Source: Microbacterium sp. SYP-A9085 (GTDB lineage: Bacteria > Actinomycetota > Actinomycetes > Actinomycetales > Microbacteriaceae). From it: 64,000 bases of DNA. The stretch is from assembly GCF_009649635.1 (NCBI RefSeq), contig NZ_WJII01000005.1, forward strand, positions 124,001 to 188,000, given 5' to 3'. Made by a program: the position numbers and the translations under genes. The notes under the pieces are model-generated. The model was not told where the DNA came from and did no database searches. It worked only from the letters and a program-made list of their open reading frames with translations. Below, piece by piece: positions 26,286-42,177 of the stretch. Each line of letters starts with the position of its first letter. Position 1 is the stretch's first letter.

Positions 26286-26753
26286 ATGCCCACCCACATC
26301 CCCGAGCCCCGGCTCGTCGGAAGCGCCCACATCATCCACCACGAGGGCTACGACACCGGAATCGTGAGCCCGTTCGTGCCGGCGATCAGGGTCGTCGACG
26401 GGGCGCGCCTCGTCTTCATCAGCGGAGTGACCGGGGCACCCGTGTACCACGACCACCCCCATCGACCGGAAGACTTCGACACGATCTCTCCGGACATGGC
26501 GGATCAGGTCCGTGACGCCTTCGATCACCTGGAGCTTGCCCTGAAAGCCGCCGGGTGCCAGCGGCAGGACGTCGTCAACCTCATCCGCTTCTTCACCGAC
26601 GTCGAGAACGATCAGGACACGGTCAACAAGCACCAGAAGGAGTGGTTCGGCGGTCATATCCCCACGAGCACCTCGGTCGAGGTGACCCGCCTCGCGACCG
26701 ATCATCGGCTGCGCCTGGAGATCCACGCCGTCGCCGCCGCCCCGGCGGGGTGA
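26286..26753 (+). CDS. Rid family protein (YjgF/YER057c/UK114), non-canonical
   Basis: 155-residue trimer-forming Rid-fold protein. RidA proteins hydrolyse reactive enamines/imines and need an arginine (E. coli RidA Arg105). Here the segment IPTSTSVEVTRLA has Ser128 at that place, and RLRLEIHAVAA has His where RidA has the second glutamate, so this belongs to a divergent Rid group whose chemistry is uncertain. ATG at 26286 follows GAGGAGG. It is the first gene of the accessory cluster and has a promoter with a LacI-type operator. RutC of the pyrimidine pathway is a Rid protein working with a flavin monooxygenase, a possible parallel. Confidence 0.85.
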   Translation: MPTHIPEPRLVGSAHIIHHEGYDTGIVSPFVPAIRVVDGARLVFISGVTGAPVYHDHPHRPEDFDTISPDMADQVRDAFDHLELALKAAGCQRQDVVNLIRFFTDVENDQDTVNKHQKEWFGGHIPTSTSVEVTRLATDHRLRLEIHAVAAAPAG

Positions 26754-26852
26754 CGGGGCGGACATCCCGGACGCGAAGGCCGGAAGTCCACTCGCAGTCG
26801 ATCAGGGGGCCCGACCCGCGTCGAGCCCTCGATCGCTGTGCCGCGTCGATGG

Positions 26853-27419
26853 TCAGGCGATCACGGATGCCGGGCCCAGCGCATGCCACGTGCGGTTGTA
26901 ATACACGAGCGGCGGCACGTCACGATCCGCCGGCTGGCGGGCCGGGGACGCCTCGAGGGCCTCAACGATGTAGACGACGGACGCCCCGGCGATCAGACGC
27001 TGGCGCACCCGACCGCGCAGCCACGCGAATGCACCGTGGAAGACCGGCTCCCCGGTGGACAAGCGGCTCCAGGCCTGCGTGTCCGCAAAGCGGTCGATGC
27101 CGCTGGTGGCTCCGAGTTGCGCGAGCCACAGCTGTTCGGCGCTGAGCATGTGGATGACGACGGTGTCACACCGATCGAGGATCGGCGTGCTGGACGAGAG
27201 AGCTGAGGCCGAGAACATCAGGAGGGCGGGCGTCGCGCTGATGGACGCGAGCGAACTGACCGTCATCGCCACAGGACTGTCGCCGGGATCCGCGGTCACG
27301 AGCGCAACGCCCGCCGCATGGTTTCGAAAGGCCGCCTTGAACGCATCGGGCGAAAGCGAGACGTCACCGTTGGCGTCCGGCGTGATCGCATCGTCGAGCT
27401 GACTGACCATGGTCATCAT
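26853..27419 (-). CDS. Flavin reductase (RutF/HpaC-type)
   Basis: 188-residue FMN/FAD-binding split-barrel reductase that supplies reduced flavin to a two-component monooxygenase. Typical order: AFRNHAAGVALVTADPG, MTVSSLASISATPALLMF, the middle TPILDRCDTVVIHMLSAEQ and the C-terminal VYIVEALEA plus PPLVYYNRTWHAL. Two possible oxygenase partners lie nearby (luciferase-like at 30112, acyl-CoA-dehydrogenase-fold at 32654). Start ATG at 27419 (a second ATG follows directly). Its promoter at 27508-27480 lies within a strong inverted repeat. Confidence 0.9.
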   Translation of the reverse strand: MMTMVSQLDDAITPDANGDVSLSPDAFKAAFRNHAAGVALVTADPGDSPVAMTVSSLASISATPALLMFSASALSSSTPILDRCDTVVIHMLSAEQLWLAQLGATSGIDRFADTQAWSRLSTGEPVFHGAFAWLRGRVRQRLIAGASVVYIVEALEASPARQPADRDVPPLVYYNRTWHALGPASVIA

Positions 27420-27472
27420 AGGTCCCTCCGTTGGGCTGCTGAGCGGGCGCCGGTTACCTCGCGTCCAATTCC

Positions 27473-27508
27473 ACTGTTCAGTTTAGTACAGTGTCACTGA
27501 ACAGTCAA
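27473..27508 (-). promoter_or_regulatory. Promoter and inverted-repeat operator of the flavin reductase
   Basis: Minus-strand TTGACT (27508-27503), 17-bp spacer, TAAACT (27485-27480). A perfect 10-bp inverted repeat, ACTGTTCAGT (27473-27482) and ACTGAACAGT (27496-27505), overlaps both boxes, so a dimer bound here would block RNA polymerase. A smaller palindrome CAGTGTCACTG lies inside (27489-27499). Related half-sites occur at other promoters of the cluster. Confidence 0.7.
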
Positions 27509-27564
27509 CGATCCCGCTCACGCCGATCTGGGCAGTTCACTGTGTTTGAACGGAAGGCATCCTG

Positions 27565-28017
27565 CTACGCGGTCGCACTCACCAGTTCGAGTTGCATGCC
27601 CCACGGCGAGAGGAAATAGACCCAGCTGCCTTCGCCGGCAGCGGAAGGTTCGCCCAGCACCGTGATGCCCTGCTCGCGCAGGAACGCGACGGCCGAGCCC
27701 ATGTCGGCCACACGGAAGGCGAGGTGGTGCCCTCCCGCGTCGTCGTTACGTGGCTGCTCGCGTCGTTGGCGCGCTCTTGCGTATTCGAAAACCTCGAAGC
27801 CGGAGCCCGCGGGGGAACGGTAAGTGCGAATGGCGGTGATCTCCGCTCCCGGCCCGACGTTCATGTGGTCTCGCAGCCAGTCGTCGTCCCACCGCTGCAC
27901 GGCGACGGAGCCGACGTGCTCACAGCCCAGCAGTCCCACGAAGAAGACATGCGCCTGCTCGATGTCGGGCACCGTGAAGCCGACGTGGTCCATGCCCTGT
28001 AAACCCGGAAGTGGCAC
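27565..28017 (-). CDS. VOC family (glyoxalase/dioxygenase-fold) protein 1
   Basis: 150-residue vicinal-oxygen-chelate protein. PGLQGMDHVGFTVPDIEQAH holds the first metal-ligand type His, GGHHLAFRV the second, and WGMQLELV ends with the usual Glu. It is clearly paralogous to the VOC protein at 43148 (shared PGL-G-DH-G-TVPDIEQAH, LGCEHV, FEVFEY, VYFLSPWG). GTG at 28017 gives MPLPGLQG, matching the paralogue's MAIPGLRG; the longer open frame has no support. It is divergent from the M24 gene with a 104-bp gap. Substrate unknown. Confidence 0.85.
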   Translation of the reverse strand: MPLPGLQGMDHVGFTVPDIEQAHVFFVGLLGCEHVGSVAVQRWDDDWLRDHMNVGPGAEITAIRTYRSPAGSGFEVFEYARARQRREQPRNDDAGGHHLAFRVADMGSAVAFLREQGITVLGEPSAAGEGSWVYFLSPWGMQLELVSATA

Positions 28018-28121: not shown

Positions 28122-29504
28122 ATGAGGAACACCGGCACCACCGGTACGAACGGCGTCGACTGGGAGGCCCGAGTCGACTTCGACCGGCTGCGAGCGGATC
28201 GTCTCGCGCGATTGAAGCAACACCTCGCGGTCTCCGACATGGGCGCCCTGCTGGCATTCGACTTCTCGAACATCCGCTACATGACGGCGACGCACATCGG
28301 CACGTGGGCGATGGACAAGCTCATCCGCTTCAGCCTGCTCACCCGGAACACGGACCCCATCTCGTGGGACTTCGGTTCGGCGGCCAAGCACCACGCACTG
28401 TACAACCCCTGGCTCGACGTCACCACCTCGGAGCTCGATGCCGATCCGCATGCGCCGCACGAGGGCGCAACGCACCCGCGCCTCGAGTCCGGAGCGCGGG
28501 CAGGAATCTCCACACTGCGCGGCGCCTTTCCGCCGGACGCAGGGATCGCCGAAGAAGTGGCCCGGAAGATCAAGCGTGAGCTTGAGAAGTTCGGCGTCGC
28601 CGGCGAACCGCTGGGCGTCGACGTCATCGAGCTCCCGATTCTGTTCGCGCTGCAGAACGAGGGCATCCGGGTGGTCGACGGACAGCAGGTGTTCATGGAG
28701 GCCCGACGGATCAAGACGGGCGACGAAATCCGATTGCTCACACAGGCCTGCTCGATGGTGGATGCCGCATACGAACAGCTCTACCGCTTCCTGCGCCCGG
28801 GGGTCCGGGAGAACGAGGCCGTCGGCCTCGTGGCCAAGACGCTCTACGACCTCGGCTCGGAGTATGTGGAAGGCGTGAACGCGATCTCGGGGGAACGATG
28901 TTCTCCCCACCCCCACGTCTTCAGCGACCGACTCATCCGACCCGGGGACCCCGCGTTCTTCGACATCCTCCACAGCTGGAACGGCTATCGCACGTGCTAC
29001 TACCGTACGTTCGCCGTCGGATCGGCATCGTCTGCTCAGAAGGACGCCTACACACGCGCACGGGAGTACATGGACAGGGCGATAGCGCTCGTGAAGCCGG
29101 GAGCGACGACGGCAGACATTTGCGCGGTCTGGCCTGCCGCCCGGGAATTCGGCTTCCCCGACGAGGAGGCGGCCTTCGCCCTCCAGTACGGCCACGGCGT
29201 CGGCCTGTCCATATGGGAGAAGCCGATCTTCTCCCGCCTCACCTCGTTCGACCACCCGGAAGTACTCGAGGAAGGTATGGTCTTCGCGCTCGAGACGTAC
29301 TGGCCGTCGGCCGATGGCTGGGGGGCGGCTCGCATCGAGGAAGAGGTCGTCGTGACCGCCGACGGCTGCGAGCTGATCACGAAGTTCCCCGCCGAGGAGC
29401 TGCTCATCGCCGGCCCTCGCTACATCGCGGTCGGCGGACCACTCAACAACGAGCGCGATTCGCAGTCCCACCGCAACACGGCGTGGGGGCGCGGCCAGGC
29501 ATGA
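28122..29504 (+). CDS. M24-family (pita-bread) hydrolase with altered metal site, paralogue A
   Basis: 460 residues: N-terminal creatinase-type domain (about 15-200) and C-terminal M24 pita-bread domain. Compared with aminopeptidase P/prolidase, the ligands Asp281 (AFFDILHSW), His358 (GHGVGL), Glu391 and Glu406 (RIEEEVV) are present, but the second metal Asp is Cys292 (GYRTCYYRTF) and the usual second His is Trp365 (SIWEKP). So it is probably not an ordinary dinuclear Xaa-Pro peptidase; metal-free or mononuclear relatives (creatinase, ectoine hydrolase, DMSP lyase DddP) show that M24 folds take other substrates. A 28-residue polar tail follows. ATG at 28122 follows GGAGGG. A second copy lies at 48761. 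Confidence 0.85.
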   Translation: MRNTGTTGTNGVDWEARVDFDRLRADRLARLKQHLAVSDMGALLAFDFSNIRYMTATHIGTWAMDKLIRFSLLTRNTDPISWDFGSAAKHHALYNPWLDVTTSELDADPHAPHEGATHPRLESGARAGISTLRGAFPPDAGIAEEVARKIKRELEKFGVAGEPLGVDVIELPILFALQNEGIRVVDGQQVFMEARRIKTGDEIRLLTQACSMVDAAYEQLYRFLRPGVRENEAVGLVAKTLYDLGSEYVEGVNAISGERCSPHPHVFSDRLIRPGDPAFFDILHSWNGYRTCYYRTFAVGSASSAQKDAYTRAREYMDRAIALVKPGATTADICAVWPAAREFGFPDEEAAFALQYGHGVGLSIWEKPIFSRLTSFDHPEVLEEGMVFALETYWPSADGWGAARIEEEVVVTADGCELITKFPAEELLIAGPRYIAVGGPLNNERDSQSHRNTAWGRGQA

Positions 29505-29567: not shown

Positions 29568-30023
29568 CTATGCCGCGGGGCGCTCGATGAGTTCGAACTC
29601 GACCCCGAAGGTGCGGATGAATCCGGCGCGGAAGACCCGCCCCGGCGCGGCGAAGTCCACGATATCGCTCACATACTCGAGGTCCATCGCGCGCGCCTTC
29701 TCCATGATCTCCTCGAGATTCGTCACCGCGAGCCCGATGTGGAACACCGCCTGCGGCGGCTTGGTGTAGTCGCGTCGCACTTCCACAGCGTTGCGCAGGT
29801 GCACCACCTCGATCAGGGACTGGCTCCCTTCTGAACCGTAGTGATTGGTCCGGGGAACGATGGGGTCACCGTCCTCCCAGCCGAACAACCGGTTCACCGG
29901 GTGCTGCTCGATCTGCTCCCGCGTCTCCCGGACCTTCTCCAGCCCGAAGACCCCCACGAGCAGGTTCTCGAAGTGATCGGGATCAACGGTACCGATCGTC
30001 ACGTGATCGATTCTTGTCGACAT
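29568..30023 (-). CDS. VOC family protein 2
   Basis: 151-residue VOC-fold protein, distinct from VOC proteins 1 and 3. It starts MSTRIDHVTIGTVDPDHFE, has FHIGLAVTNLEEIMEKA in the second half and ends FGVEFELIERPAA. Metal ligands by pattern are His7, His in AVFHIGLAV and Glu in VEFELIE. Last gene of the minus-strand unit flavoprotein monooxygenase, binding protein, luciferase-like oxygenase, VOC 2. An ACTGAAC half-site (30047-30053) lies 24 bp upstream of the start at 30023. Confidence 0.83.
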   Translation of the reverse strand: MSTRIDHVTIGTVDPDHFENLLVGVFGLEKVRETREQIEQHPVNRLFGWEDGDPIVPRTNHYGSEGSQSLIEVVHLRNAVEVRRDYTKPPQAVFHIGLAVTNLEEIMEKARAMDLEYVSDIVDFAAPGRVFRAGFIRTFGVEFELIERPAA

Positions 30024-30111: not shown

Positions 30112-31296
30112 CTAGACGACGCGGCCCATGCGCTGGTCCGAGTCGCCCTGGCCATCCGCGGCCCCGCCGGCCTCGACCGGATCCGGCAACCCGTACTGTC
30201 CCCGCACGACCGAACCGGGCCTGGTGAACTCGGGGATCACGTATCGCCCGATGAGGTCCAACGAGCGCATGACCTTCTCGTGGCCCATCCCCTCGATGCG
30301 CATGGTGACCTCGTCGTAGCCGAGTGATTCGAGCGTCTTGATGCTCTCGATGAAGTCGTCCGGATCGCCGAGCATGACCTGGGGGGTCCGATTCATCAGC
30401 CCGACCACGTCCTGGTCCTCGTACAGGCCACCGAGCTGGTTGCCGACCTCCCCCATGTACGCGAAGTCCTTCGACCTTTTCGCGAGATTGCCATACGTGA
30501 ACTTGGAGACTCGCCCGAGGTAGCTCAGGGCGATCGGCCCGCCCGTCTCGACGGCCTCCCGCTTGGTCGGGGCGCAGTAGGCCGGGATCATCGTGTAGCA
30601 CAGTCCGTTGGTGATCCGCGAGCTCACCGGCCGCGAAGGGTTCAGGATCTCCTCCCGGTACTGCTTGATGGGCTCGTACAAGACGTCCATGCCGAGCCAG
30701 TTGTCCGAGGAGATGCAGCCCAGGCCACGCTCGGCCGCGAGCTTGTGCGACTCCGCGCTGGTCGCCACCATGTAGATCGGCGGGTGCGGGTGCTGCGCCC
30801 CCCGCGGGCTGATCATGGCCGGCGGAAAGTCGATGTGCTTGCCGTGATACTCGAACGGCTCCGTGCTTGCCAGCAGTCCGGCGACCGCCTCGATGAACTC
30901 GAGCATCTGCTCGCGCGTCTCTTTGGCGTCGACCCCGAAGGTGTCGAGGACCGTGGGGCTGTTTCCGCGGCCCAGGCCGAGTTCGAAGCGCCCCTTCGAG
31001 AGGATGTCGACCGTGTTCACGGCTTCGGCGAGCCGTATCGGATCGTTCACCTTAGGCAGTGCCAGCACGATCTGCGAACGCAGCTTGATGGTGTGCGTCT
31101 TCGCTGCGACGTAGGCGTAGAACACGAGCGGCTGCGATGTCGTCGACGACTGGTGGTAGAAGTGCTGCTCGGAGCCGCCCCAGAAGTCGAAGCCGACGTC
31201 CTCGGCCTTCTGGACCTCCCGCACAAGCTCGTGGTATCGATACTCGTGGGTCGTCCCCCGCGGTGTCTCGTTCTCCATGATCAGGCCAAATCGCAT
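30112..31296 (-). CDS. Luciferase-like (LLM class) flavin-dependent oxygenase
   Basis: 394-residue TIM-barrel monooxygenase using reduced FMN supplied by a reductase. Family features: MRFGLIMENETPRGTTHEYR start, EDVGFDFWGGSEQHFY, the strand TIKLRSQIVLALPKVNDPIRLAE, LGLGRGNSP and IYMVATSAESHKLAAERGLG. RutA, which opens the uracil ring, and several amine or sulfonate oxygenases belong to this superfamily; the substrate here is not evident. ATG at 31296 follows AGGAGCG; the longer open frame to 31374 lacks support. The likely flavin donor is the reductase at 26853. Confidence 0.88.
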   Translation of the reverse strand: MRFGLIMENETPRGTTHEYRYHELVREVQKAEDVGFDFWGGSEQHFYHQSSTTSQPLVFYAYVAAKTHTIKLRSQIVLALPKVNDPIRLAEAVNTVDILSKGRFELGLGRGNSPTVLDTFGVDAKETREQMLEFIEAVAGLLASTEPFEYHGKHIDFPPAMISPRGAQHPHPPIYMVATSAESHKLAAERGLGCISSDNWLGMDVLYEPIKQYREEILNPSRPVSSRITNGLCYTMIPAYCAPTKREAVETGGPIALSYLGRVSKFTYGNLAKRSKDFAYMGEVGNQLGGLYEDQDVVGLMNRTPQVMLGDPDDFIESIKTLESLGYDEVTMRIEGMGHEKVMRSLDLIGRYVIPEFTRPGSVVRGQYGLPDPVEAGGAADGQGDSDQRMGRVV

Positions 31297-31347
31297 TGTC
31301 AATCGCTCCTTTGTGTTTCTCTTGCAGCCGGCTGCGGGAAAAGAGGT

Positions 31348-31379
31348 GTGGGGCGCCCACCGGTCGATGGACACCCCAC
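31348..31379 (-). terminator. Intercistronic hairpin after the binding-protein gene
   Basis: An 11-bp stem with two G-T pairs (31348-31358 with 31369-31379, GTGGGGCGCCC against GGACACCCCAC) lies between the binding-protein stop at 31403 and the oxygenase start at 31296. Such hairpins often reduce read-through or protect the upstream mRNA so that binding proteins are made in excess. Confidence 0.6.
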
Positions 31380-31402: not shown

Positions 31403-32524
31403 CTACTTCACGCCCCACCGCTCGTAGAACCTCTTGTCCAGGCCCGGCCCGTATGACACGGTGCCGTCCGCGACCTCGGCAGCGCTGCCGATGTTGGACG
31501 CGGTGATCATGCCGCCGAGGTCCAGGATGATGTCCGTCTTCTCAAGGTTGGCCCCACGGGTGAGCTTGACGGCCTGGTCGAATCCCATGAGCACCTTGAT
31601 CGTGTTCGGCTCGGCCAGGGTGTAGCCGCTCACACCCTTGCGGATGTAGTCGAGGAACGCCGGGTAACCGCCCTTCGAGAAGACCTTGACCTTCTTCCCG
31701 GTGGCCAGCACAGCGTTGCCGACGCCGGAGCACGGTCCGTCGTAGGGGCACCAGAAGGCGGCGATGTCCGGGTGCGCCTGCATCATGGCATTGGCATCCG
31801 CCGCGCCGCCGGGCACGCCCTTGGCATAGTCGAACTGCTTCTGGGCGACGATGTCGAACTTGTCGCCGATCGCCTTCCGGAAGCCCTGCTCCAGGAGTCG
31901 GCCGCTGGCGGCCTGCTGGTCGAAGAGCAAGCCGATCTTGGACCCTGCAGGGACCTCCTTGATCAGGCGCTCGCCGACGAGCCTCCCCTGCTCGAGCAGG
32001 TTCGACTCGACCGACGACGCAAAAGCGCCCTTGGACCCGGATGCGTTGACTCCGGAGGTCTCGCTGATCACGAAGACGCCCGCCTCCTTGGCGGTGGCAA
32101 GCGCGTCTCGTCCGATCAGGTCCGGACCCATGGAGCCGGTCAGGATGACGTCGGCACCCGCCTCGACCATCGTCTTCAACGTCGGTCCGGCCTGGCCGAC
32201 CTGACCCTTGAGGTCGGCGACCTTGAACTCCCAACCGAGGTGCTCTGCGTACGTCCTGGCGAGTTCGACCTGTTCAGCGAACGGGTCCGTCGACATGTCG
32301 ATGACCATCATGCCGAACGTCTTGCCCTTCTGCGCCGGGTTCTTCTCCTTGAAGAACTCGTCGAGGTTGTAACGCGGCACATCCTTCAGCTGCTCGGCCT
32401 TGCTTTCGGTGTTCGTCGGTGCCGGCGTGGGGGCATCTGAGCCCCCGGTGCTGCAGGCAGCCGTCATCAGGAGAAGCGTTGCGGCTCCTGCGATGGCAAT
32501 GGGCTTGAAGACCTTCAGCTTCAT
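31403..32524 (-). CDS. Ribose-type ABC transporter substrate-binding lipoprotein
   Basis: 373 residues: signal peptide with lipobox TAAC (Cys24), short Ser/Thr/Pro linker, then a two-lobed periplasmic-binding-protein type I fold (FGMMVIDMSTDPFAEQVEL, GADVILTGSMGP, KIGLLFDQQAASGRLLEQG, KVKVFSKGGYPAFLDYIRKG). It should serve the RbsC/RbsA-like permease and ATPase at 39205-41721, which lack a binding protein of their own. ATG at 32524 follows AAAGGAG. The fold is used for sugars but also for purines, autoinducers and other ligands, so the substrate need not be a sugar. Confidence 0.88.
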   Translation of the reverse strand: MKLKVFKPIAIAGAATLLLMTAACSTGGSDAPTPAPTNTESKAEQLKDVPRYNLDEFFKEKNPAQKGKTFGMMVIDMSTDPFAEQVELARTYAEHLGWEFKVADLKGQVGQAGPTLKTMVEAGADVILTGSMGPDLIGRDALATAKEAGVFVISETSGVNASGSKGAFASSVESNLLEQGRLVGERLIKEVPAGSKIGLLFDQQAASGRLLEQGFRKAIGDKFDIVAQKQFDYAKGVPGGAADANAMMQAHPDIAAFWCPYDGPCSGVGNAVLATGKKVKVFSKGGYPAFLDYIRKGVSGYTLAEPNTIKVLMGFDQAVKLTRGANLEKTDIILDLGGMITASNIGSAAEVADGTVSYGPGLDKRFYERWGVK

Positions 32525-32653: not shown

Positions 32654-33856
32654 CTAGACGACGGGCAGGACGAATCGTGCCTCGTCCTCCCGGCCGAAGA
32701 TGACCTTGCCGTAGGACTCATAGCCGCTGGCGCCGAGCGTGTGCCCGTGCCGCGCGGCGGTTGCCTGGTCGCGCCACATGCGCTGCAGCAATGCCGAGTC
32801 GGCGAATCCTCCGGACCCGTGAGCCGTCATCAGCTCGTGGATCATCTGGGTGATGGACTCCACGACCCAGCCGGCCTTGGCCCGCATCTCGATGCGCTCG
32901 CCGTACGGCGCGTAGTAACCGCGTCCGGCGCCGTCGTAGATCCGGTCCGCCAGCTGCCCGGCCACCTGCTCGGCGGCGTTCAGGATGACCGAAGCCTTGG
33001 CGATCGCGATCTGGAACGCCGCGGAGTCGGACTGCTTGGCGAAGCTCGTGAACGTGATGGCCTTCGAGTCGGCCTTCGCGATGGCGTAGTCCAGCGCTGC
33101 GCGCCCCATGCCCAGATGCGGCCCGACGAGCTTCATGAACAATGACGGGACGAATACCGTTCGGTAGCTCTGTTCCGTGTTGGTGCCCAGGTAGCCGCCC
33201 TCCACCGCCGCAGTGAGCGGGAATACGCGGTGCGCAGGAACGAAGACATCGTCGGCCACCTGCATGACACTGCCGCTGGACTTCATGCCCGCCACATACC
33301 AATTGTCCTGATAGCTCAGGTCTGCGCTCGGAATCAGGACGAGGCCCGCGTCCACCACCTGACCGGCGTCGTCCTTGAGGGGGATCCCGAGCAGCGACCA
33401 GTCGGAGTGCAGACTCCCCGTGCCGTAACCCCACTTTCCCGTCACACGGTAGCCGCCGTCCACCTTCACAGCGTCGGACGAGGTCGCCAGGACGATCGAG
33501 ACGAACGCACCCTGTGCGCCCTTCTCGCCCCAGACATCTTCCTGGGCGCGATCGTCCATGAGGCTCAGCACCCAGGCGCCGGAGTCGAGGATGCCGCAGA
33601 TCCACGCGGCACCACCGTCGCAGCGTCCTACTGCGCGGGAGATCGAGTGGATCTCACGCGTGTTCGCCGCAAGGCCGCCGAAGCGAGGAGGAGCAGATAC
33701 ACCGAACGCACCGGTACCCGCCAGAGCCGTGAAGATGTCGTCAGGCAGGCGACGAAGCTGCTCTCCTTCCCGTCCGCGTTCGTTGAGCATCGGACGCAAT
33801 TGGTCGATGCGCTCCACGATTGCCGCAATCTCGGGCCTGATACCTGCATCCGCCAT
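32654..33856 (-). CDS. Acyl-CoA-dehydrogenase-fold flavin-dependent monooxygenase
   Basis: 400 residues. The fold is that of acyl-CoA dehydrogenases, but SISRAVGRCDGGAAWICGI and RVTGKWGYGTGSLHSDW resemble the group D flavoprotein monooxygenases (HsaA, DszC, indole oxygenase) that take reduced flavin from a separate reductase and hydroxylate aromatic or heteroaromatic rings. No catalytic Glu typical of dehydrogenases is evident at the usual C-terminal place. First gene of its operon, with a TTGACA promoter flanked by GTTCAG/CTGAAC sites. Start ATG at 33856. Confidence 0.85.
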   Translation of the reverse strand: MADAGIRPEIAAIVERIDQLRPMLNERGREGEQLRRLPDDIFTALAGTGAFGVSAPPRFGGLAANTREIHSISRAVGRCDGGAAWICGILDSGAWVLSLMDDRAQEDVWGEKGAQGAFVSIVLATSSDAVKVDGGYRVTGKWGYGTGSLHSDWSLLGIPLKDDAGQVVDAGLVLIPSADLSYQDNWYVAGMKSSGSVMQVADDVFVPAHRVFPLTAAVEGGYLGTNTEQSYRTVFVPSLFMKLVGPHLGMGRAALDYAIAKADSKAITFTSFAKQSDSAAFQIAIAKASVILNAAEQVAGQLADRIYDGAGRGYYAPYGERIEMRAKAGWVVESITQMIHELMTAHGSGGFADSALLQRMWRDQATAARHGHTLGASGYESYGKVIFGREDEARFVLPVV

Positions 33857-34054: not shown

Positions 34055-34711
34055 TCACGGACCATCGGCGTGACGGAGCGCCCCTGCGACGGAACCCCGG
34101 CCACGCGGCAAGACTTCGGCGGAGTGTCTGCCCAGAGTGAACCACACTCCGCGTGCCGGCACGTCCCCGAGGTTCGAGAACATGTGGGGCCTCGCCGAGT
34201 TGAACCGTAGCGAATCCCCGCGTTCCAGCTGATACGTCTCGAATTCGAGCTGAAAGGTGAGGACGCCCTCGATGATGTAGGCGTACTCGATGCCGGTGTG
34301 CCGCATGAGCTTGCCCTCGACAGAACTCGTCGCCCCGGGCTCGTATGTGACGACCATGGCCTCCGCCGGGCTGTTGCGGCCCATGGCCAGCCGCTCCCAA
34401 CGGACCCCGTTCTCCATCTCTATCGTCGGGTTCTCGGCCGCCCTCTGGATCTCGGGACCCAAGGTCCTCAGATCCGTGTATTCGTCCTCGCCCTGGTGGT
34501 CGACCTCCAGGCCGAGCACCTCATCGATCGAGATGCCGAGAAGGTTCGCGAGCGAAACCAGCGTGGCGACCGAGGGGCGCGTCTTCCCCGTCTCCACTTG
34601 CGAGATGAGGCTGGCGGAAACACCCACCTCCTGGGCGAGATGCCGCAGGCTCATCTTGCGTTCCAGTCGCGCTGCGCGCAGGCGTTCACCGATGGTCTCT
34701 TGAGTGGTCAT
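34055..34711 (-). CDS. XRE-cupin transcriptional regulator
   Basis: 218 residues: N-terminal HTH_3 domain (LRAARLERKMSLRHLAQEVG, SASLISQVETGKTRPSVATL) and C-terminal cupin (IEYAYIIEGVLTFQLEFET, LERGDSLRFNSARPHMF). Regulators of this type (PuuR-like) bind small ligands in the cupin and control catabolic or amine-utilisation genes. It is divergent from the second Rid gene (207-bp gap, otherwise without a recognisable gene) and lies just upstream of the flavin-monooxygenase promoter, so it is a candidate reader of the GTTCAG sites. Start ATG at 34711. Confidence 0.9.
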   Translation of the reverse strand: MTTQETIGERLRAARLERKMSLRHLAQEVGVSASLISQVETGKTRPSVATLVSLANLLGISIDEVLGLEVDHQGEDEYTDLRTLGPEIQRAAENPTIEMENGVRWERLAMGRNSPAEAMVVTYEPGATSSVEGKLMRHTGIEYAYIIEGVLTFQLEFETYQLERGDSLRFNSARPHMFSNLGDVPARGVWFTLGRHSAEVLPRGRGSVAGALRHADGP

Positions 34712-34918
34712 GGTCCTCTCCGGCTCAGAATAGGCGCGCCGACAGGACAGGGCGCTCGGTCTGCTGACCTGCTACGTCCACCATATTGCCCGAAACCATC
34801 CGACGGCCTCAATTGGGCTGATCAATCGCACACCTTCACTGGACAGATTTGTTTAGGCCTGCTGTACTTGGGTGGATGGCTCGTCAATCGAGCCCCGGAA
34901 GGCTGAGGAGTGGCTGCA

Positions 34919-35305
34919 ATGTCCAATGATCGAATCACCTACAACCCGGCGCCCGTCGTGCCAGGGATCTCGGACAGCGTCCGAGTCAAGGCCGGCGAGC
35001 TACTTTTCGTATCGGGTCAGGTCGGGTTCGAGGATGATGGTTCGATCCCAGAGGACCTTGCGCGGGCGATCCATCTCACGTATGCCGAGGTGGAACGCGC
35101 ACTCAAGGCGGGAGGCGCAACGTGGGAAGACCTCGTACGGGTCAACGTCTACATCACTCAGCTCGACGACGAGAAGCTTGCGATCTGGCGTGAGACCCGC
35201 AATCAGATCGTGAAGGTCGACAATCCGTGCGCGAGCACCGTCATCGGCGTGCACTCCCTCTACAACGGCGCCAAGATCGAAGTCGACGCCATCGCGGCGG
35301 TCTAA
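34919..35305 (+). CDS. Rid family protein 2, non-canonical
   Basis: 128-residue Rid-fold protein. LLFVSGQVGFEDDGSIPEDLA and VNVYITQLDDEKL are family segments. At the position of RidA Arg105 it has Ala105 (NPCASTVIG) and the catalytic-glutamate position reads Asp123 (IEVDAIAAV), so like the first Rid protein it should lack standard imine deaminase activity. ATG at 34919 is preferred over GTG at 34910 because GAGGAG (34905-34910) is spaced 8 nt from it. Divergent from the XRE-cupin regulator. Confidence 0.85.
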   Translation: MSNDRITYNPAPVVPGISDSVRVKAGELLFVSGQVGFEDDGSIPEDLARAIHLTYAEVERALKAGGATWEDLVRVNVYITQLDDEKLAIWRETRNQIVKVDNPCASTVIGVHSLYNGAKIEVDAIAAV

Positions 35306-35416: not shown

Positions 35417-36715
35417 TTGGCCGTCGAAAAGCCGTCCACCACCATCTCCGCCACCGGGCCCGACACGGTGACCGCCGGGCGGTCGGTGGTGCTCGTGCTG
35501 CTGGCCGTCTTCCTCGTGGGCGCGAACATGCGGATCTCGGTGTACAGCGTGGGACCGCTGATCGAACTCGTCGCGACACAGGAGTCGGTGGCAGTGGCCT
35601 CCCTCGGGGGACTCGTGTCCGTTCCCCTCTTCGCGTGGGGGCTCGTCTCTGCGTTCGCGCACGCGCTGAGCGCACGATTCGGAACCTATCGAACCGTCCT
35701 CGTATCCCTGGTCACGCTCGGACTCGGGACCTTATGCCGATCGTGGCCGGGTGAGGTCGCCAATATTTGGATCGGGACCTTCATCATCGGCGCATCGCTG
35801 GCGATCGGGAACGTGCTCATTCCGCCGCTCATCCGGCGGGACTTCGGGTCTCGCACTCCCCTGATGATCGGCATGTACACGGGTCTGATGGCGAGCGTGG
35901 GCGCAATCGGCGCAGGCGTGATGGTCCCCCTCGCCCAGCTCGAGGTAGGCGGCGCACCGCTGGGTTGGCGATTCGCGCTCCTGATGACCGGCGCGCCGCT
36001 GCTACCCGCCCTCCTCTGCTGGGTTATCGCGTATCGGGCGCGCGGTTCATCGCCCGCTGCAAGGACCGGTCGGCTCAGCCGACCGAGCTCCGCTGCTGCG
36101 AGCATCCGTGAAACCGGCGTCGGCTCGCGCACCGGCTCCGTGTGGCGCAGCACACTCGCGTGGCTGGTCGGCATCTACATGGGGTCGCAGTCGGCGAGCT
36201 TCTACATCCTGTCCACCTGGATCCCCCTGATCAGCGTCTCTCACGGCCGTCCGCTCGTCGTCGCGGGTTTCGACGTCATGATCTTTCAGCTCAGCAGCAT
36301 CCTCGGCTCGTTCGCAGTGCCGCTCGTGTATCGCGGTCGGCTTGAACGCTGGCTGCCGGCAGTGCTTCCCGTCTTCATGCTGGGGATGACACTCCTCCTG
36401 GTGTTCGCGGCCGACCTGATCCCCCTGGCAACCTTGTTCGGCGGCCTCCTGGCGGGCCTCTCGCTCAGTGTCGCCCTCACCCTGCCGCTGATCCGCACGC
36501 GCGACTACCTCACCTCCACCGCCTTGTCCGGCATGGCCCAATCGATCGGCTACAGCGTTGCGGCGGTGGGCCCCATCACGTTCGGCCTTCTGCACCACCT
36601 CGCCGGCGACTGGCTGCTCCCCGTGGGCCTGCTCGCACTGGTCGCCGCCCTGCAGTTCGGCTCGGGGCTTGTCGTGGGCGACGACAGACGATACGTCTCC
36701 GGCCGGCCGGACTAG
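35417..36715 (+). CDS. CynX/NimT-type MFS permease
   Basis: 432-residue 12-helix major facilitator. FLVGANMRISVYSVGPLI in helix 1 and NVLIPPLIRRDFGSRTPLMIG in the middle are typical of the CynX/NimT group (cyanate and 2-nitroimidazole transporters). A charged loop (about 205-245) links the two halves. The start appears to be TTG at 35417 with a poor ribosome site; GTG codons near 35467 are alternatives and would trim the polar N-terminus. It may import or export the cluster's substrate. Its stop overlaps the convergent asparaginase stop by 4 nt. Confidence 0.82.
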   Translation: MAVEKPSTTISATGPDTVTAGRSVVLVLLAVFLVGANMRISVYSVGPLIELVATQESVAVASLGGLVSVPLFAWGLVSAFAHALSARFGTYRTVLVSLVTLGLGTLCRSWPGEVANIWIGTFIIGASLAIGNVLIPPLIRRDFGSRTPLMIGMYTGLMASVGAIGAGVMVPLAQLEVGGAPLGWRFALLMTGAPLLPALLCWVIAYRARGSSPAARTGRLSRPSSAAASIRETGVGSRTGSVWRSTLAWLVGIYMGSQSASFYILSTWIPLISVSHGRPLVVAGFDVMIFQLSSILGSFAVPLVYRGRLERWLPAVLPVFMLGMTLLLVFAADLIPLATLFGGLLAGLSLSVALTLPLIRTRDYLTSTALSGMAQSIGYSVAAVGPITFGLLHHLAGDWLLPVGLLALVAALQFGSGLVVGDDRRYVSGRPD

Positions 36716-37722
36716 CGCGAGCTCCGATGTTCGAGCGCCTCCACCGCGGAACGCGTTCGTGGCGCGAGGGACTGGCCGGATGCCGACGCCAGCACCGCCA
36801 CCAGGATCCGCGCCTGAAAGATCGACAGCCCGCCCATCCCGACGGCGCCCGCTGCGGCAAGGCTCGCGCCGCCGCCCGCGCCATACAGCGCCGCGACGGG
36901 ACCGAACGGCACGCGGGAGGAGAGGCCCACCATCGTGCCGTCGGCAACGGCCTGGGCGACCCACGCCTGCACGGCGGGATTGGCGTTGCCCGCGCCCATG
37001 CCTCCCAGGATCACCGCCGCCGATCCCTGCGCGACGCACGCGTCGAGGAGCCGCGCGTCGAAGCCCGGATAGAGCATGACGACGGCGACGCGGGCGTGAT
37101 CGAACGCGGCAGTCATCGGAAGCGCCTCCAGCGCGCCGAGGGCACGCTGCGCAGGCCCGGAGTAGCGCAGGCGCGAGCCGGTGATCTTCCCCAGCGGCGG
37201 CACGTTGACCGCGTCGAACGCATCGAGGTCCAGCGTGCGCAGTTTGCGGCACCCGACGGCCGGGAGCACCTTTCCCGCGAAGACCACCATCACGCCACGA
37301 CCGCGGGACGATTCGGCGGCCGCCACGTGCAGCGCATCCCGAAGATTGCGCTCCCCATCCGGGTCCTCGGAATCCGGGGTGCGCTGCGCCCCCGTGAAGA
37401 CGACCGGCTTGGGAGTGTCCACACACAGCGCGACAGCGCACGCCGTCTCCTCGAGCGTGTCGGTGCCGTGGGCCACCACCACCCCGCGAACGTCCGGCCG
37501 CGCGACCTGCGTCGCAACGGCATCGACCACCGTTCGGATGTCGCGCAGCGTCATGAGGTAGGAGTTGGTGTGGAGCACGTCGACGACGTCCTCCTGGGCC
37601 GGCCGTCCCGCCAGGCCGGTGAGCAAGTCGGCTCCGCCATCCCTCACCGAGGCGGAGCCGGAGGCGTCGAAGCGGGAGGCGATGGTTCCCCCCGTCGCCA
37701 GGACCACTACACGCGTCATCAT
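36712..37722 (-). CDS. Asparaginase-family amidohydrolase
   Basis: 336 residues of the L-asparaginase (type I/II) fold. The two catalytic threonine segments are intact: ATGGTIAS (Thr13) and VAHGTDTLEETA (Thr87, Asp88). VFTGAQRTPDSEDPDGERN and VMLYPGFDARLLDA are also family segments. It hydrolyses a side-chain amide such as asparagine or a related compound in the cytoplasm; no signal peptide. Third from the start of enzymes in the minus-strand operon that runs SnoaL, ABC ATPase, permease, amidase, asparaginase (42177 to 36712), suggesting that its real substrate is an intermediate of the pathway. Confidence 0.88.
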   Translation of the reverse strand: MMTRVVVLATGGTIASRFDASGSASVRDGGADLLTGLAGRPAQEDVVDVLHTNSYLMTLRDIRTVVDAVATQVARPDVRGVVVAHGTDTLEETACAVALCVDTPKPVVFTGAQRTPDSEDPDGERNLRDALHVAAAESSRGRGVMVVFAGKVLPAVGCRKLRTLDLDAFDAVNVPPLGKITGSRLRYSGPAQRALGALEALPMTAAFDHARVAVVMLYPGFDARLLDACVAQGSAAVILGGMGAGNANPAVQAWVAQAVADGTMVGLSSRVPFGPVAALYGAGGGASLAAAGAVGMGGLSIFQARILVAVLASASGQSLAPRTRSAVEALEHRSSR

Positions 37723-39204: not shown

Positions 39205-40161
39205 CTACTTGGCGGATCCCAGAACATCCTCGGCTCGCCGGTTCATGGAGCCGATGGCGACCGCGATGATCAGGATGGCGCCGATCACGAGGTCGCTCGT
39301 CCACGTCGGCACGTTCGCGATGACGAGGCCGTTCGTGATCGTGGGGACCAGGATGGCGCCATACAGCGTGCCCGGGATGGTGAAGGCACCCGTGCGGCTG
39401 GCCGCCGCGCCGACGAACACCGCCGTAAAGGCGGAGAACAGGTAGGTGTTCCCCAGGTTCGGGTTGCCCGAGCCGAGCTGGGCGGCGACGAGGATGCCGC
39501 CGATGCCGGCGAGGAGGGTTCCTCCGCCGAGTGCCCAGAATGTGTACGCCGACACCCTGATGCCCGCCAGCCGCGTGGCCTCGGGGTTACGGCCGGCCGC
39601 CTGAAGGCTGCGCCCGCCCACCGCGTAGCGCAGCAGGACGGTCAGGATCACCGCGACCACGAGCATCACCACCGCGGTCAGCGGAAGGAACCCGACCGAG
39701 GCACGTCCGAACAGCACGAAGGGCTCCACCTCGATCGGCTGGTAGATGCCACCGCTGATGCCATGCGTGACGCCCAGGACGATCGACATCATGCCGAGGC
39801 CGCCCACGATCGAGGGGACCTTGAACCACACCACGGCCGCCGCCGTGGCCAGGCCGAAGATCAGCGACACGATCAGCGCGATCAGCAGCGCGATGATGAA
39901 CGGCACGCCCGCCCCGAGGCTGATCGCGAAGAGCACGCCGGTGAACGTCGTGACCATTCCGACCGAGAGGTCCAGTTCGCCGTTCATGAGCGCGAGCGCG
40001 ACACCGAAGGCCACCATCGCCTGTACCGAGACCTGGGACAGGATCACGGAGGCGTTGGAGAAGGACGCGAAATTGGGCCAGAAGATCGAGAAGACGATGA
40101 TCACGACGAGGAGGACGCCGAGGGCCGCGATGGGGGGGATGCTGGGTGTGATTCTCTTCAT
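39205..40161 (-). CDS. Ribose-type ABC transporter permease (RbsC-like)
   Basis: 318-residue inner-membrane permease with about eight to ten hydrophobic segments and the BPD_transp_2 pattern: ASVILSQVSVQAMVAFGVA, NGELDLSVGMVTTFTGVL and RSLQAAGRNPEATRLAGI (the EAA-like coupling loop). Partner of the ATPase at 40198; the binding protein is the distant 31403 gene. Start ATG at 40161, 36 bp after the ATPase stop. Confidence 0.9.
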   Translation of the reverse strand: MKRITPSIPPIAALGVLLVVIIVFSIFWPNFASFSNASVILSQVSVQAMVAFGVALALMNGELDLSVGMVTTFTGVLFAISLGAGVPFIIALLIALIVSLIFGLATAAAVVWFKVPSIVGGLGMMSIVLGVTHGISGGIYQPIEVEPFVLFGRASVGFLPLTAVVMLVVAVILTVLLRYAVGGRSLQAAGRNPEATRLAGIRVSAYTFWALGGGTLLAGIGGILVAAQLGSGNPNLGNTYLFSAFTAVFVGAAASRTGAFTIPGTLYGAILVPTITNGLVIANVPTWTSDLVIGAILIIAVAIGSMNRRAEDVLGSAK

Positions 40162-40197
40162 GGTCTATGAACATTCCAAACGGGATCGGTGGGCGGA

Positions 40198-41721
40198 TCA
40201 GAAACAAGCAGCGATGATGTTGCTTTTCGTCAGGTCGGCGTCGGAGAGTTCGGCGACGACCGCTCCTTCGCGGAGCACGACGACCCGGTCGGCGACATCG
40301 ACCAGTTCGTCCAGCTCCGAGATCGCGACGACGACGGCCATGCCCTCGGCGGCGAGCTGCCGCACCATGGCGTAGATGTCGCGGCGGCTTCCCACGTCGA
40401 CGCCGCGAGAGGGCTCGTCGAGCAGGAGCACCTGCGGGTTGTGTTCGATCATCCTGGCGAACAGCACTTTCTGCTGGTTGCCGCCGGACAGCGTCCGCAT
40501 CAGTGCCGCCGGCTTGGCGCCGCGGATGCGCAGACTGTCGATCCACTTGCGCGCGGTCTCGAACTCGGAGGCATACCCGATCCACCAGGGGATCTTCGCC
40601 GTGGGGGTGCGCCTGCCGATCGTCATGTGCGCGCCGATTGTGAGATTGTCGACGATCCCCTGGTGGATGCGGTCCTCGGGCAGGAAGGCGAAGCCGCGGC
40701 GGCGAGACCGCGCGGTGGAGCCCAGCCGCACCCGTCGGCCGTCCACGGTGACCGAGCCGGTGGCCTGGCGGTCTGCCCCCGCCAGGGCGCGAAGCACACT
40801 CGTCCGTCCCGAACCCACCAGGCCCGCGAGGCCGAGGATCTCCCCCGACCGCGCGGAGAACGAGACCGGGGTGCGGCGATGCGCCAGCTTGAGGTTCTCG
40901 ACGTCGAGCATGACCTCGCCGATCGGGCGATGGACCGCGTCGGGGGTGTCCCCGGCCTCGACACTCACCTCGACGGGTCGATCGAGCGGGCCGGAGATGT
41001 AGTGAACCAGCGTGTCGCGGGTGATCTCGCTTGTGGGTGCGTCGAACACCGATCGGGCATCCCGCATGATGTGCACGCGCGAGCAGAGCGCCAGGACTTC
41101 GTCCAGGCGGTGCGAGACGAAGATGATGGCCGTGCCCTGCTTCTGCATTTCCCTGACGGCGGAGAACAGCATCTCGACGCCGTCATGGTCGAGCGCCGAC
41201 GTCGGCTCGTCCAGGATCAACAGCTTGGGCTCTGCGACGAGCGCATGCCCGAGCGAGGCCACCCACTTCTCCCAGAGCGAGGCCTCGGAGATCGGCTTGG
41301 ACACGTCGACGGCGACCCCGATGCGGGCGAGGATCTCGCTGGCCCGCGCCTCCGTCTGCCGCCAGCTGATGAGCGGGCCGAATCCTGGTTTGCGATGCCC
41401 GAAGAAGACGTTCTCCGCGATCGTCTGGTGGTCGATCAGGTGAGGTTCCTGGTAGATCACCGCCACGCCGGCGGCAAGTGACTCACTCGGGGTGTGGTGC
41501 TCGAGCAGCACGCCATCGACGGTGATGGTGCCCTCGTCCGGCACCGTGGCGCCGGAGACCATCCCGATCACGGTGCTCTTGCCGGCGCCGTTGGCGCCCA
41601 CCAGGCCGAGGATCTCGCCCTTGTACACGTCGAGGCTGACATCGTCCACGGCACGCATGTCGCCGTACTGTTTGACCGCGCCGCGCACGGCGAGCACGAC
41701 GTCGTTGTCTGTGTTCTTCAC
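40198..41721 (-). CDS. Ribose-type ABC transporter ATPase (RbsA-like, two NBDs)
   Basis: 507 residues with two fused nucleotide-binding domains. The first has GLVGANGAGKST and LLILDEPTSALD; the second has GLVGSGRTS in place of a canonical P-loop (common in RbsA/MglA proteins), LSGGNQQKVLFARMI and VLLLDEPSRGVDVGS. Energises the permease at 39205. The start is GTG at 41721; the overlapping ATG one base upstream would be followed by TGA, so it is not used. 57 bp downstream of the SnoaL-like gene. Confidence 0.9.
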   Translation of the reverse strand: MKNTDNDVVLAVRGAVKQYGDMRAVDDVSLDVYKGEILGLVGANGAGKSTVIGMVSGATVPDEGTITVDGVLLEHHTPSESLAAGVAVIYQEPHLIDHQTIAENVFFGHRKPGFGPLISWRQTEARASEILARIGVAVDVSKPISEASLWEKWVASLGHALVAEPKLLILDEPTSALDHDGVEMLFSAVREMQKQGTAIIFVSHRLDEVLALCSRVHIMRDARSVFDAPTSEITRDTLVHYISGPLDRPVEVSVEAGDTPDAVHRPIGEVMLDVENLKLAHRRTPVSFSARSGEILGLAGLVGSGRTSVLRALAGADRQATGSVTVDGRRVRLGSTARSRRRGFAFLPEDRIHQGIVDNLTIGAHMTIGRRTPTAKIPWWIGYASEFETARKWIDSLRIRGAKPAALMRTLSGGNQQKVLFARMIEHNPQVLLLDEPSRGVDVGSRRDIYAMVRQLAAEGMAVVVAISELDELVDVADRVVVLREGAVVAELSDADLTKSNIIAACF

Positions 41722-41778
41722 ATCCCTATCCCTGCTGTCTGGAGTCGTCGGCTCTGACGGGGAATCCGGCAGTCCGGG

Positions 41779-42177
41779 TCATTGCGAAGCCCACTCTTCG
41801 AATGGGTGATCGATCGAGATCAGCCAAGCGCCGTCTGCGTCCTGCGTCAGCACGTCGTGGGCGCTCCCCCGGAACTGGTCGACGGTTTCACCGTCGTCCA
41901 GTCGCATCACGTATCCCGTGCAGACAAGCGCGATTCCATCGCCGTAGACGGTCAGTTCCTCCCGCAGCTCGACGTCTCTTGTGAGCCCCGACGCGGCGAC
42001 GCCGACGAAACGTTCCCTGATCCGGTCCCTGCCCGAGATCACGGAGCCGTCCCGCAGACGCATCACCGCGTTGTCGTGGTAGTTCGCGATGTAGGCCTCG
42101 ACATCCTTCGCCGCCGCCGCCGCCACAACAGCCTTCACCACCTCCAGGGGGGTCCGCTCCTTGGCTTCCCTGCTCAT
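41779..42177 (-). CDS. SnoaL/NTF2-like protein
   Basis: 132-residue NTF2-fold protein: VEAYIANYHDNAVMRLRDG, ISGRDRIRERFVGVAASG, GTGYVMRLDDGE-type strand (CTGYVMRLDDGETVDQFRG) and AWLISIDHPFEEWASQ. The fold serves small isomerases, cyclases and hydrolases or mere ligand binding; no function can be assigned. ATG at 42177 is chosen over the longer frame. First gene of the operon that contains the ABC ATPase, permease, amidase and asparaginase. The upstream gap 42178-42450 holds a GTTCAG-N5-CTGAAC palindrome and no gene. Confidence 0.75.
   Translation of the reverse strand: MSREAKERTPLEVVKAVVAAAAAKDVEAYIANYHDNAVMRLRDGSVISGRDRIRERFVGVAASGLTRDVELREELTVYGDGIALVCTGYVMRLDDGETVDQFRGSAHDVLTQDADGAWLISIDHPFEEWASQ

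What the first reader, a model, noticed from the sequence alone, without database searches (positions are those of the whole stretch)
26286..42177. Possible new flavin-dependent ring- or amide-degradation pathway
The cluster combines a luciferase-like oxygenase, an acyl-CoA-dehydrogenase-fold oxygenase, a flavin reductase, two Rid proteins, three VOC proteins, amidase, asparaginase, M24 hydrolase, dedicated importers and an exporter/permease. The Rut pathway (RutA luciferase-like, RutF reductase, RutC Rid, RutB isochorismatase-fold) shows how such parts open a nitrogen heterocycle, but here the hydrolases and second oxygenase differ. A nitrogen-containing aromatic or heterocyclic compound would be oxidised, ring-opened and then deamidated. 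Substrate unknown.
Basis: inference. Interest (0 to 1): 0.7.

Follow-up and report, generated by a model that had tools for sequence, protein, structure and literature searches.

The report
Aminophenol-type pathway, new front end
A bacterium carries a gene cluster that resembles known pathways for breaking down aminophenols (compounds that arise, for example, from cereal root toxins), but the first enzyme seen in its relatives is missing and a different set, probably acting on an amide or a nitrogen ring, stands beside the shared part.

Summary
The genes are there, but the cluster is larger than reported (about 26.2-51 kb) and Rut is not its nearest relative. The acyl-CoA-dehydrogenase-fold oxygenase is 47% identical to SadB (4-aminophenol monooxygenase of sulfonamide degraders) and 63-73% identical to enzymes in five other genomes of the genus, with which it forms one clade. 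In all five it adjoins a flavin reductase and lies within 13 kb of an MBL-fold lactonase resembling BxdA, the benzoxazinoid lactonase of maize-root Microbacterium; most also link Rid, M24 and VOC/E1/E2/aldehyde-dehydrogenase genes. Oxygenase: 6 of 149 genomes; lactonase: 5 of those 6, the window genome being the exception. It has instead a luciferase-like oxygenase of an unplaced branch, a SnoaL protein, an amidase, an asparaginase and one ABC importer split between two operons. A similar luciferase-like/SnoaL/amidase trio is annotated as tetramethylpyrazine (Tpd) genes in Rhodococcus, though the amidases are of different kinds. Best reading: a bxd/Sad-type aminophenol pathway with an exchanged entry, through an amide or heteroring. 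Both Rid proteins lack the catalytic arginine; the M24 proteins carry Cys for a metal-binding Asp in 82 of 82 copies. Substrate unproven.

The parts
26175..26753 (+). Rid protein 1 (true start perhaps 26286)
   Evidence: PF01042; Ser where RidA/TdcF has the catalytic Arg
26853..27419 (-). flavin reductase, SadC-like
   Evidence: PF01613; 49% to SadC/SulR and 60% to the reductase of a Paenarthrobacter plasmid; 57% paralogue elsewhere in the genome
27565..28257 (-). VOC protein (start probably further in)
   Evidence: PF13669; 52% to the VOC gene of L025
28122..29504 (+). M24-fold protein a, non-canonical metal site
   Evidence: PF00557; 86 and 80% to Paenarthrobacter plasmid copies; D-C-H-E-E in 82 of 82 copies
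29568..30023 (-). VOC-like protein
   Evidence: PF13669 at 21 bits, below the cut-off of 27
30112..31374 (-). luciferase-like flavin oxygenase (start perhaps 31296)
   Evidence: PF00296; best relatives 39%; unresolved branch of its group
31403..32524 (-). ABC importer binding protein
   Evidence: PF13407; lipoprotein-like signal seen by eye
32654..33856 (-). SadB-like group D flavin oxygenase
   Evidence: 47% to SadB WP_036299419; 63-73% to seven genus copies; tree
34055..34711 (-). HTH-cupin regulator
   Evidence: PF01381 + PF07883; 51-52% in two Paenarthrobacter plasmids
34910..35305 (+). Rid protein 2
   Evidence: PF01042; 63-73% in plasmids; catalytic Arg absent
35417..36715 (+). CynX-type MFS permease
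   Evidence: TIGR00896 at 215 bits, below the cut-off of 406
36712..37722 (-). asparaginase-family hydrolase
   Evidence: PF00710 + PF17763; only copy found in the genome
37765..39171 (-). amidase-signature hydrolase
   Evidence: PF01425, 229 bits; best plasmid hit 40%
39205..40161 (-). ABC importer permease
   Evidence: PF02653
40198..41721 (-). ABC importer ATPase
   Evidence: PF00005 twice
41779..42255 (-). SnoaL/SgcJ-type protein, distantly TpdB-like
   Evidence: TIGR02246 above cut-off; 26% to the TpdB-annotated protein and 32% to its R. pyridinivorans counterpart
42451..43293 (-). GntR/FCD regulator
   Evidence: PF00392 + PF07729
43148..43750 (-). VOC protein (start uncertain; the call overlaps GntR)
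   Evidence: PF13669; label found in 58 of 87 loci
43797..45986 (+). fused E1 alpha-beta of a 2-oxo acid dehydrogenase
   Evidence: PF00676, PF02779, PF02780; 61% in L025
45988..47277 (+). E2 acyltransferase
   Evidence: TIGR01349 at 417 bits, cut-off 445
47315..48691 (+). succinate-semialdehyde-dehydrogenase type aldehyde dehydrogenase
   Evidence: PRK09406 above its cut-off
48761..49996 (-). M24-fold protein b
   Evidence: DddP-like M24 hits; Cys in the metal site, His kept
49993..50967 (-). HIBADH-like oxidoreductase
   Evidence: TIGR01505 at 163 bits, below the cut-off of 341

Best explanation
A catabolic cluster of the bxd/Sad type for aminophenol-like aromatics, with an exchanged front end. 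INFERRED: an ABC importer, its parts divided between two operons, brings in a polar N-containing aromatic. Its amide bond or heteroring is opened by the amidase, alone or after oxidation by the luciferase-like oxygenase and its SnoaL partner, which sets an aminophenol free. The SadB-like monooxygenase, supplied with reduced flavin by the SadC-like reductase, hydroxylates it with loss of ammonia. The lower set (M24 proteins, VOC, HIBADH-like and SSADH-type dehydrogenases, E1/E2) cleaves the ring and feeds the carbon into central metabolism. SHOWN here: gene content; relationship and linkage of oxygenase and lower set in relatives; co-occurrence of that oxygenase with a BxdA-like lactonase in five relatives; no such lactonase found in the window genome. 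NOT shown: any substrate or reaction, which enzyme cleaves the ring, that the lactonase is BxdA, or that the two halves form one pathway.
For: SadB-like: 47% to SadB, 100/100 clade with seven copies from five genus genomes, inside a 100/100 group that holds SadB. Same core on Paenarthrobacter plasmids and, in the sad clusters of Microbacterium BR1 and SDZm4, sadB, sadC, hydratase, HTH-cupin, Rid, M24 in a row. In 149 genus genomes the oxygenase is in 6 and the lactonase in 5, all among those 6; the sixth is the window genome. Lactonase 1.2-12.3 kb from the oxygenase in 5 of 5. An Arthrobacter copy of the lactonase, 79%, again lies with Rid2, HTH-cupin, M24 and HIBADH-type genes. Published BxdA traits fit: about 34 kDa, AHL-lactonase family, 78.9% similarity in Pseudarthrobacter, cluster with aldehyde dehydrogenase, VOC and NAD(P)-dependent oxidoreductase (passages of PMC11297187). 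SadB-like, binding-protein and luciferase-like genes are in one orientation, 106-129 bases apart, and the matching ATPase and permease are in the amidase unit. Luciferase-like, SnoaL-type and amidase genes are neighbours in two Rhodococcus plasmids.
Against: Novosphingobium and Burkholderia plasmids with 65-67% lactonases show no SadB-like, flavin reductase, Rid, M24, VOC or E1/E2 hit within 12 kb; the Burkholderia one has a 31% aldehyde dehydrogenase. The window amidase is not close to the Tpd amidases (different best NCBIfam models), and its best plasmid relative, 40%, has no luciferase-like relative of this group or SadB-like hit beside it. The window SnoaL is only 26-32% to the Tpd-type proteins and had no plasmid match at 1e-5. 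M24a is in 23 of 149 genus genomes, the oxygenase in 6, so the M24 core serves other purposes too. G117 and G935 have 97% identical lactonases, so the five are not independent.
Confidence: 0.45

Rival explanations
1. Two unrelated catabolic modules side by side in an island: a SadB-like/M24/E1/E2 aminophenol module and an independent amide or heterocycle module.
For: The luciferase-like gene was found only in the own genome of 198 relatives at 1e-60 while the SadB-like/M24 set recurs. G+C is about 0.65 over 28-36 kb against about 0.72 in the first 24 kb. Several regulators lie in the cluster. No fetched locus outside the window has both oxygenases.
Against: SadB-like, binding-protein and luciferase-like genes lie in one orientation with gaps of 129 and 106 bases, and the only ribose-type ATPase and permease found in the scanned part are in the SnoaL/amidase/asparaginase unit.
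Confidence: 0.25
2. One reading: an N-heterocycle such as a pyrazine or pyridine is opened first by the luciferase-like oxygenase with SnoaL, the amide is cut by the amidase, and the SadB-like enzyme is a second hydroxylase on the heterocycle.
For: Luciferase-like, TpdB-annotated and amidase genes are adjacent in R. opacus 1CP, and luciferase-like, SgcJ-type and amidase genes in R. pyridinivorans. Other luciferase-like relatives sit with amidase, Rid, aldehyde dehydrogenase and flavin reductase. tpdABC is needed for the first steps of tetramethylpyrazine breakdown (passages of PMC6099782).
Against: The window luciferase-like protein does not group with the Tpd branch; the SnoaL and amidase are distant; no LuxR regulator of TpdR type was found (the LuxR at 25186-25935 is 250 aa; TpdR is given as 788 aa). 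The SadB relationship points to aminophenols.
Confidence: 0.2

Closest known systems
bxd benzoxazinoid cluster of maize-root Microbacterium (Thoenen 2024, PMC11297187, passages read)
   Same: Aldehyde dehydrogenase, VOC and NAD(P)-dependent oxidoreductase types; five genus relatives of the window with the same oxygenase carry a BxdA-like lactonase.
   Different: No such lactonase found in the window genome; the window adds luciferase-like, SnoaL, amidase and asparaginase genes. Its full gene list is in a supplement I could not read.
sad sulfonamide cluster (SadA, SadB, SadC; PMC5693940 and PMC6868719, passages read)
   Same: SadB-like oxygenase 47%, flavin reductase 49%, HTH-cupin 52%, Rid 73%, M24 86%; gene order with hydratase, Cro/CI regulator and YjgF-type gene in the legend of PMC5693940.
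   Different: No SadA-branch enzyme in the window cluster; an extra ABC importer, luciferase-like and amide-hydrolase genes. The SadB clade and the window clade are sister branches, not one.
tpd tetramethylpyrazine genes of Rhodococcus (PMC6099782, passages read)
   Same: Luciferase-like oxygenase, SnoaL/SgcJ-type protein, amidase, flavin reductase.
   Different: 36-37% for the oxygenase, 26-32% for SnoaL, amidase of another kind; genes split in two units; separate branch in the tree.
Rut pyrimidine pathway (recalled)
   Same: Fold classes: luciferase-like oxygenase, flavin reductase, Rid; an isochorismatase-fold gene just outside at 24395-25048.
   Different: No RutA model among the hits shown; Rid proteins without catalytic Arg; a second oxygenase of another fold; amidase-signature hydrolase.

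Membership tests
bxd cluster | BxdA-type lactonase | tested here: not met
   No match at E<=1e-50 in the own genome, 5 of 149 others in the genus have it; nothing significant in the window
bxd cluster | same aldehyde dehydrogenase, VOC and oxidoreductase genes | tested here: inconclusive
   Types are present; sequences of the bxd genes were not available
bxd cluster | induction by MBOA | not testable with these tools
   needs RNA-seq
sad cluster | SadA sulfonamide monooxygenase | tested here: not met
   Only oxygenase of this fold among the scanned cluster genes is SadB-like; rows taken as SadA from gene order fall in another branch
sad cluster | SadB/SadC pair | tested here: inconclusive
   47% and 49% homologues present, in a sister clade; activity unknown
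tpd operon | TpdA-TpdB-TpdC in one operon | tested here: not met
   Luciferase-like and SnoaL/amidase genes are in two units; luciferase-like not in the Tpd branch
Rut pathway | RutA family oxygenase | tested here: not met
   Not among the 25 best NCBIfam models shown of 29 and 30
Rid imine hydrolases | catalytic arginine (Arg105 of TdcF) | tested here: not met
   Replaced in both proteins in pairwise alignments; role of the residue from PMC4433059 passages
M24 metallopeptidase | metal ligands D-D-H-E-E (recalled) | tested here: not met
   Second Asp is Cys in 82 of 82 copies from 80 loci; the usual His of M24 peptidases is Trp in 80 of 82

The most novel reading that the evidence does not exclude
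The cluster lets its host live on the conjugated or condensed products that other organisms make from benzoxazinoids (N-acyl-aminophenols, malonamic acids or aminophenoxazinones), by using an oxidative/amide-cleaving entry in place of the BxdA lactonase, and its ring is cleaved by an M24-fold enzyme whose metal site was rebuilt with a cysteine, much as NicX was derived from another peptidase family.
Probability: 0.12. Interest if true: 0.8.

Novelty: new variant of a known kind. Interest (0 to 1): 0.5.

Why it matters
The authors of the bxd work write that the roles of the genes beyond bxdA remain to be uncovered (PMC11297187, passage). The comparison gives a concrete point to test: that a SadB-type oxygenase takes over the aminophenol. 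It also suggests that sulfonamide degraders and presumed benzoxazinoid degraders draw on one common lower gene set, and that the window genome shows the same set with another entry. The M24 subfamily with cysteine in its metal site is common in Microbacteriaceae and none of the NCBIfam hits listed for it reaches its cut-off.

Tried and rejected
Rut pathway: rejected as closest relative. Sulfonamide degradation itself: no SadA-branch enzyme among the scanned cluster genes; a 31% SadB-like paralogue with a flavin reductase lies elsewhere in the genome (L140). 4-Hydroxypyridine (kpi) pathway: KpiA is PF01494 and KpiC PF01979, families hit by none of the 30 window proteins I scanned with Pfam. Plain housekeeping PDH or peptidase: unlikely, since such E1/E2 and M24 genes lie beside oxygenase, reductase or transporter genes on plasmids of other genera. 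Benzoxazinoid use by the window strain through BxdA: not possible by the genes found.

Led nowhere: genome-contig scan with the luciferase-like protein; SnoaL against plasmids; paper searches (no papers; no paper on the pathway's enzymes seen). The sequences of TgnA, PyrA, BxdA, TpdA-C of the type strains were not available, so no direct test was made against them. Of the 20 listed best plasmid hits of the luciferase-like protein I fetched 14; H11 and H16-H20 I did not. Several of those records carry no annotation. Structure prediction was not used: homologues of the luciferase-like protein came from sources that tool does not accept, and the M24 fold is plain from sequence.

Weak points of method: gene calls rest on codon-position G+C, starts are uncertain; loci were labelled by tblastn with E and length limits, which finds close homologues only and missed some annotated Rid, SnoaL and flavin-reductase genes, so absences in those tables are soft. 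In the tree the program flags long branches; the window protein itself has a long branch.
Full report
WHAT IS THERE. The window is C8:124001-188000 of a 2.92 Mb genome, 99.99% complete; the genus is unnamed, probably Microbacterium, since the closest named M24 loci (91-92%) are mostly Microbacterium. Gene calls from codon-position G+C and Pfam/NCBIfam scans confirm the listed families with corrections: two VOC genes, not three, inside the stated range, and a SnoaL-type protein overlooked. The importer found there is a single ribose-type ABC system. Its binding protein sits in the unit SadB-like, binding protein, luciferase-like, VOC (gaps 129, 106 and 88 bases, using my start choices); its ATPase and permease sit in the unit SnoaL, ATPase, permease, amidase, asparaginase (gaps 57, 36, 33, 42). 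G+C is about 0.65 over 28-36 kb against about 0.72 in the first 24 kb.

THE OXYGENASE. The acyl-CoA-dehydrogenase-fold protein is a group D type flavin oxygenase: HsaA model 207 bits, below the equivalog cut-off of 450; XiaF is the best solved relative. Its best plasmid hit, 47%, is WP_036299419, which PMC6868719 names as SadB, 4-aminophenol monooxygenase (passages; enzyme work in PMC5693940, passages). In a tree of 26 rows it forms a 100/100 clade with seven rows from five genomes of its genus, inside a 100/100 group of 15 rows that holds SadB; the rows I take as SadA from gene order fall elsewhere (long branches are flagged there).

OTHER GENERA. Two Paenarthrobacter plasmids carry the same set: M24 86/81%, Rid 73/63%, HTH-cupin 52/51%, flavin reductase 49/60%, SadB-like 47/46%, and one of them also E1 61%, E2 48%, VOC 55%. 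A scan with the M24 alignment kept the best 80 of 507 loci, itself a capped list. In 87 loci (these 80 and 7 plasmid loci) the labels were: M24a 84, HTH-cupin 60, VOC 58, HIBADH-type oxidoreductase 56 (query taken from a Paenarthrobacter plasmid; the window's own HIBADH is the best label in only 3), ABC ATPase 48, E1 43, GntR 43, permease 38, E2 33, SDR 26, SSADH 21, Rid2 9, SadB-like 8, flavin reductase 6. The loci were chosen by M24a, so its count is by construction. Zinc alcohol dehydrogenase (39 loci), ketopantoate-reductase-like (30), amidohydrolase (24), SDR (22), PRISE-type (21) and bicupin (10) clusters are also common. So there is a widespread M24/VOC/E1/E2 core beside which other genes vary; the SadB-like module is in a minority.

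THE KEY COMPARISON. In a genus sample of 149 genomes (I take the samples to be the same) M24a at E<=1e-150 is in 23 and the SadB-like oxygenase at E<=1e-70 in 6, the own genome included in both. I fetched stretches around it in the five others. A flavin reductase adjoins the oxygenase, at least one copy, in 5 of 5. A Rid2 homologue is in the stretches of 5 of 5, close by in 4 and about 16 kb away in G106. An M24 gene is close in 4 of 5; in G085 it lies far off. VOC/E1/E2/SSADH is close in 3 of 5 and not seen in the stretches of G106 and G085. An MBL-fold protein of about 298 aa lies 1.2-12.3 kb from an oxygenase copy in all five. It is in 5 of 149 genomes, exactly these five, with no match at 1e-50 in the window genome. 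As independent draws that has p about 1e-8, but G117 and G935 have 97% identical copies, so the true weight is less. Plasmid homologues of about 30-34% are named N-acyl homoserine lactonase family. Among the loci held, an Arthrobacter sp. MI7-26 copy, 79%, lies with Rid2, HTH-cupin, M24a and HIBADH-type genes. PMC11297187 (passages) reports for BxdA: about 34 kDa, AHL-lactonase family, 78.9% similarity in Pseudarthrobacter, a 15-gene Microbacterium cluster with an aldehyde dehydrogenase, a VOC protein and an NAD(P)-dependent oxidoreductase, and hydrolysis of MBOA to an aminophenol. I therefore read the five as candidate bxd clusters and the window as a relative that lost or never had the lactonase. 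Against a strict tie: Novosphingobium and Burkholderia plasmids with 65-67% lactonases show none of the SadB-like, reductase, Rid, M24, VOC or E1/E2 genes within 12 kb, only a 31% aldehyde dehydrogenase and a CynX-type gene in Burkholderia. NCBIfam has no fitting equivalog for the lactonase; the best is 4-pyridoxolactonase, 64 bits against a cut-off of 325.

THE FRONT END. The luciferase-like gene was found, own genome included, in 1 of 198 relatives at 1e-60, 8 of 394 in the class at 1e-40 and 2 of 396 in the phylum at 1e-50. In the stretches of the five relatives no luciferase-like, SnoaL or asparaginase hit appears; G052 and G106 have amidase-family hits of other kinds and G117 has its own ribose-type importer. 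The luciferase-like protein falls in a 99/99 group with three branches: one with the TpdB-annotated R. opacus 1CP locus and R. pyridinivorans, one with aldehyde dehydrogenase and EthD genes in two plasmids, and one with enoyl-CoA hydratase and CoA-ligase genes in several, of which two also have amidase, Rid and aldehyde dehydrogenase. The window protein is a further, long, unresolved branch. The neighbourhood of luciferase-like, SnoaL-type and amidase genes in Rhodococcus suggests that the three window genes act together, but the window amidase is of another kind than the Tpd-type one (best models PRK06169 against PRK07869) and the SnoaL similarity is 26-32%. That tpdABC is needed for the first steps of tetramethylpyrazine breakdown is in PMC6099782 (passages); the reactions are recalled. 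Control: of 12 stretches with the genome's 13 other luciferase-like genes, one has an amidase-family hit and one a flavin reductase with a 31% SadB-like paralogue; no Rid or SnoaL hit appears, but this screen also missed Rid and SnoaL genes annotated in other loci, so it is weak.

DETAILS. Both Rid proteins lack the arginine that imine hydrolysis needs (PMC4433059 passages), so 'Rid deaminates the ring-opening product' is unlikely in its simple form. The M24 proteins keep four of the five usual metal ligands (positions recalled), but the second Asp is Cys in 82 of 82 copies from 80 loci, and the usual His is Trp in 80 of 82; window M24b keeps the His (alignments). M24a aligns over both domains with 4s00 (that this is the DMSP lyase DddP is recalled). 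PMC7356986 (passages) notes that two pyridine ring-cleaving dioxygenases, NicX and KpiC, belong to metallohydrolase folds. Among the window genes scanned I saw no intradiol, LigB-type or bicupin family, so VOC or M24 proteins are the candidates for ring cleavage; this is inference.

VERDICT. The cluster is real and its core is linked in relatives. It is best read as a bxd/Sad-type aminophenol pathway with an exchanged entry. N-acyl-aminophenols or a benzo-fused N-heterocycle would fit the parts; the substrate is unknown. In the paper search none of the 20 papers listed, of 127, holds both 'sadb' and a benzoxazinoid term, and the main text of PMC11297187 has no word beginning with 'oxygenase' or 'flavin'; its supplementary gene table could not be read, so I make no claim of priority.

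Noticed in passing
L032-L111, window 28122-29504 and 48761-49996: An M24 subfamily widespread in Microbacteriaceae has D-C-H-E-E in the metal site in 82 of 82 copies.
   Followed up: partly
G000:C1 about 477.8-480 kb (L140): A second flavin reductase (57%) and a 31% SadB-like paralogue lie together, near one of the genome's other luciferase-like genes.
   Followed up: no
window 21393-24497: A 1034-aa ORF matches a nucleobase permease family only at 572-974 and overlaps the isochorismatase-fold gene at 24395; its start is probably wrong.
   Followed up: no
window 52201-56269: An ABC importer of another type beside LacI; in L104 and L111 ABC genes lie with Rid1- and M24b-like genes.
   Followed up: no
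L146-L149 (Azospirillum, Bradyrhizobium, Paraburkholderia, Burkholderia plasmids): A recurring set of luciferase-like oxygenase, creatininase-family protein, two enoyl-CoA hydratases and an AMP-binding protein, with a flavin reductase in each; function unknown to me.
   Followed up: no
L031 (Streptomyces sp. YIM 121038 plasmid): HIBADH-type, M24, SSADH, VOC, E1, E2, flavin reductase, a different luciferase-like oxygenase and an importer lie in a row: the same core with another front end.
   Followed up: partly
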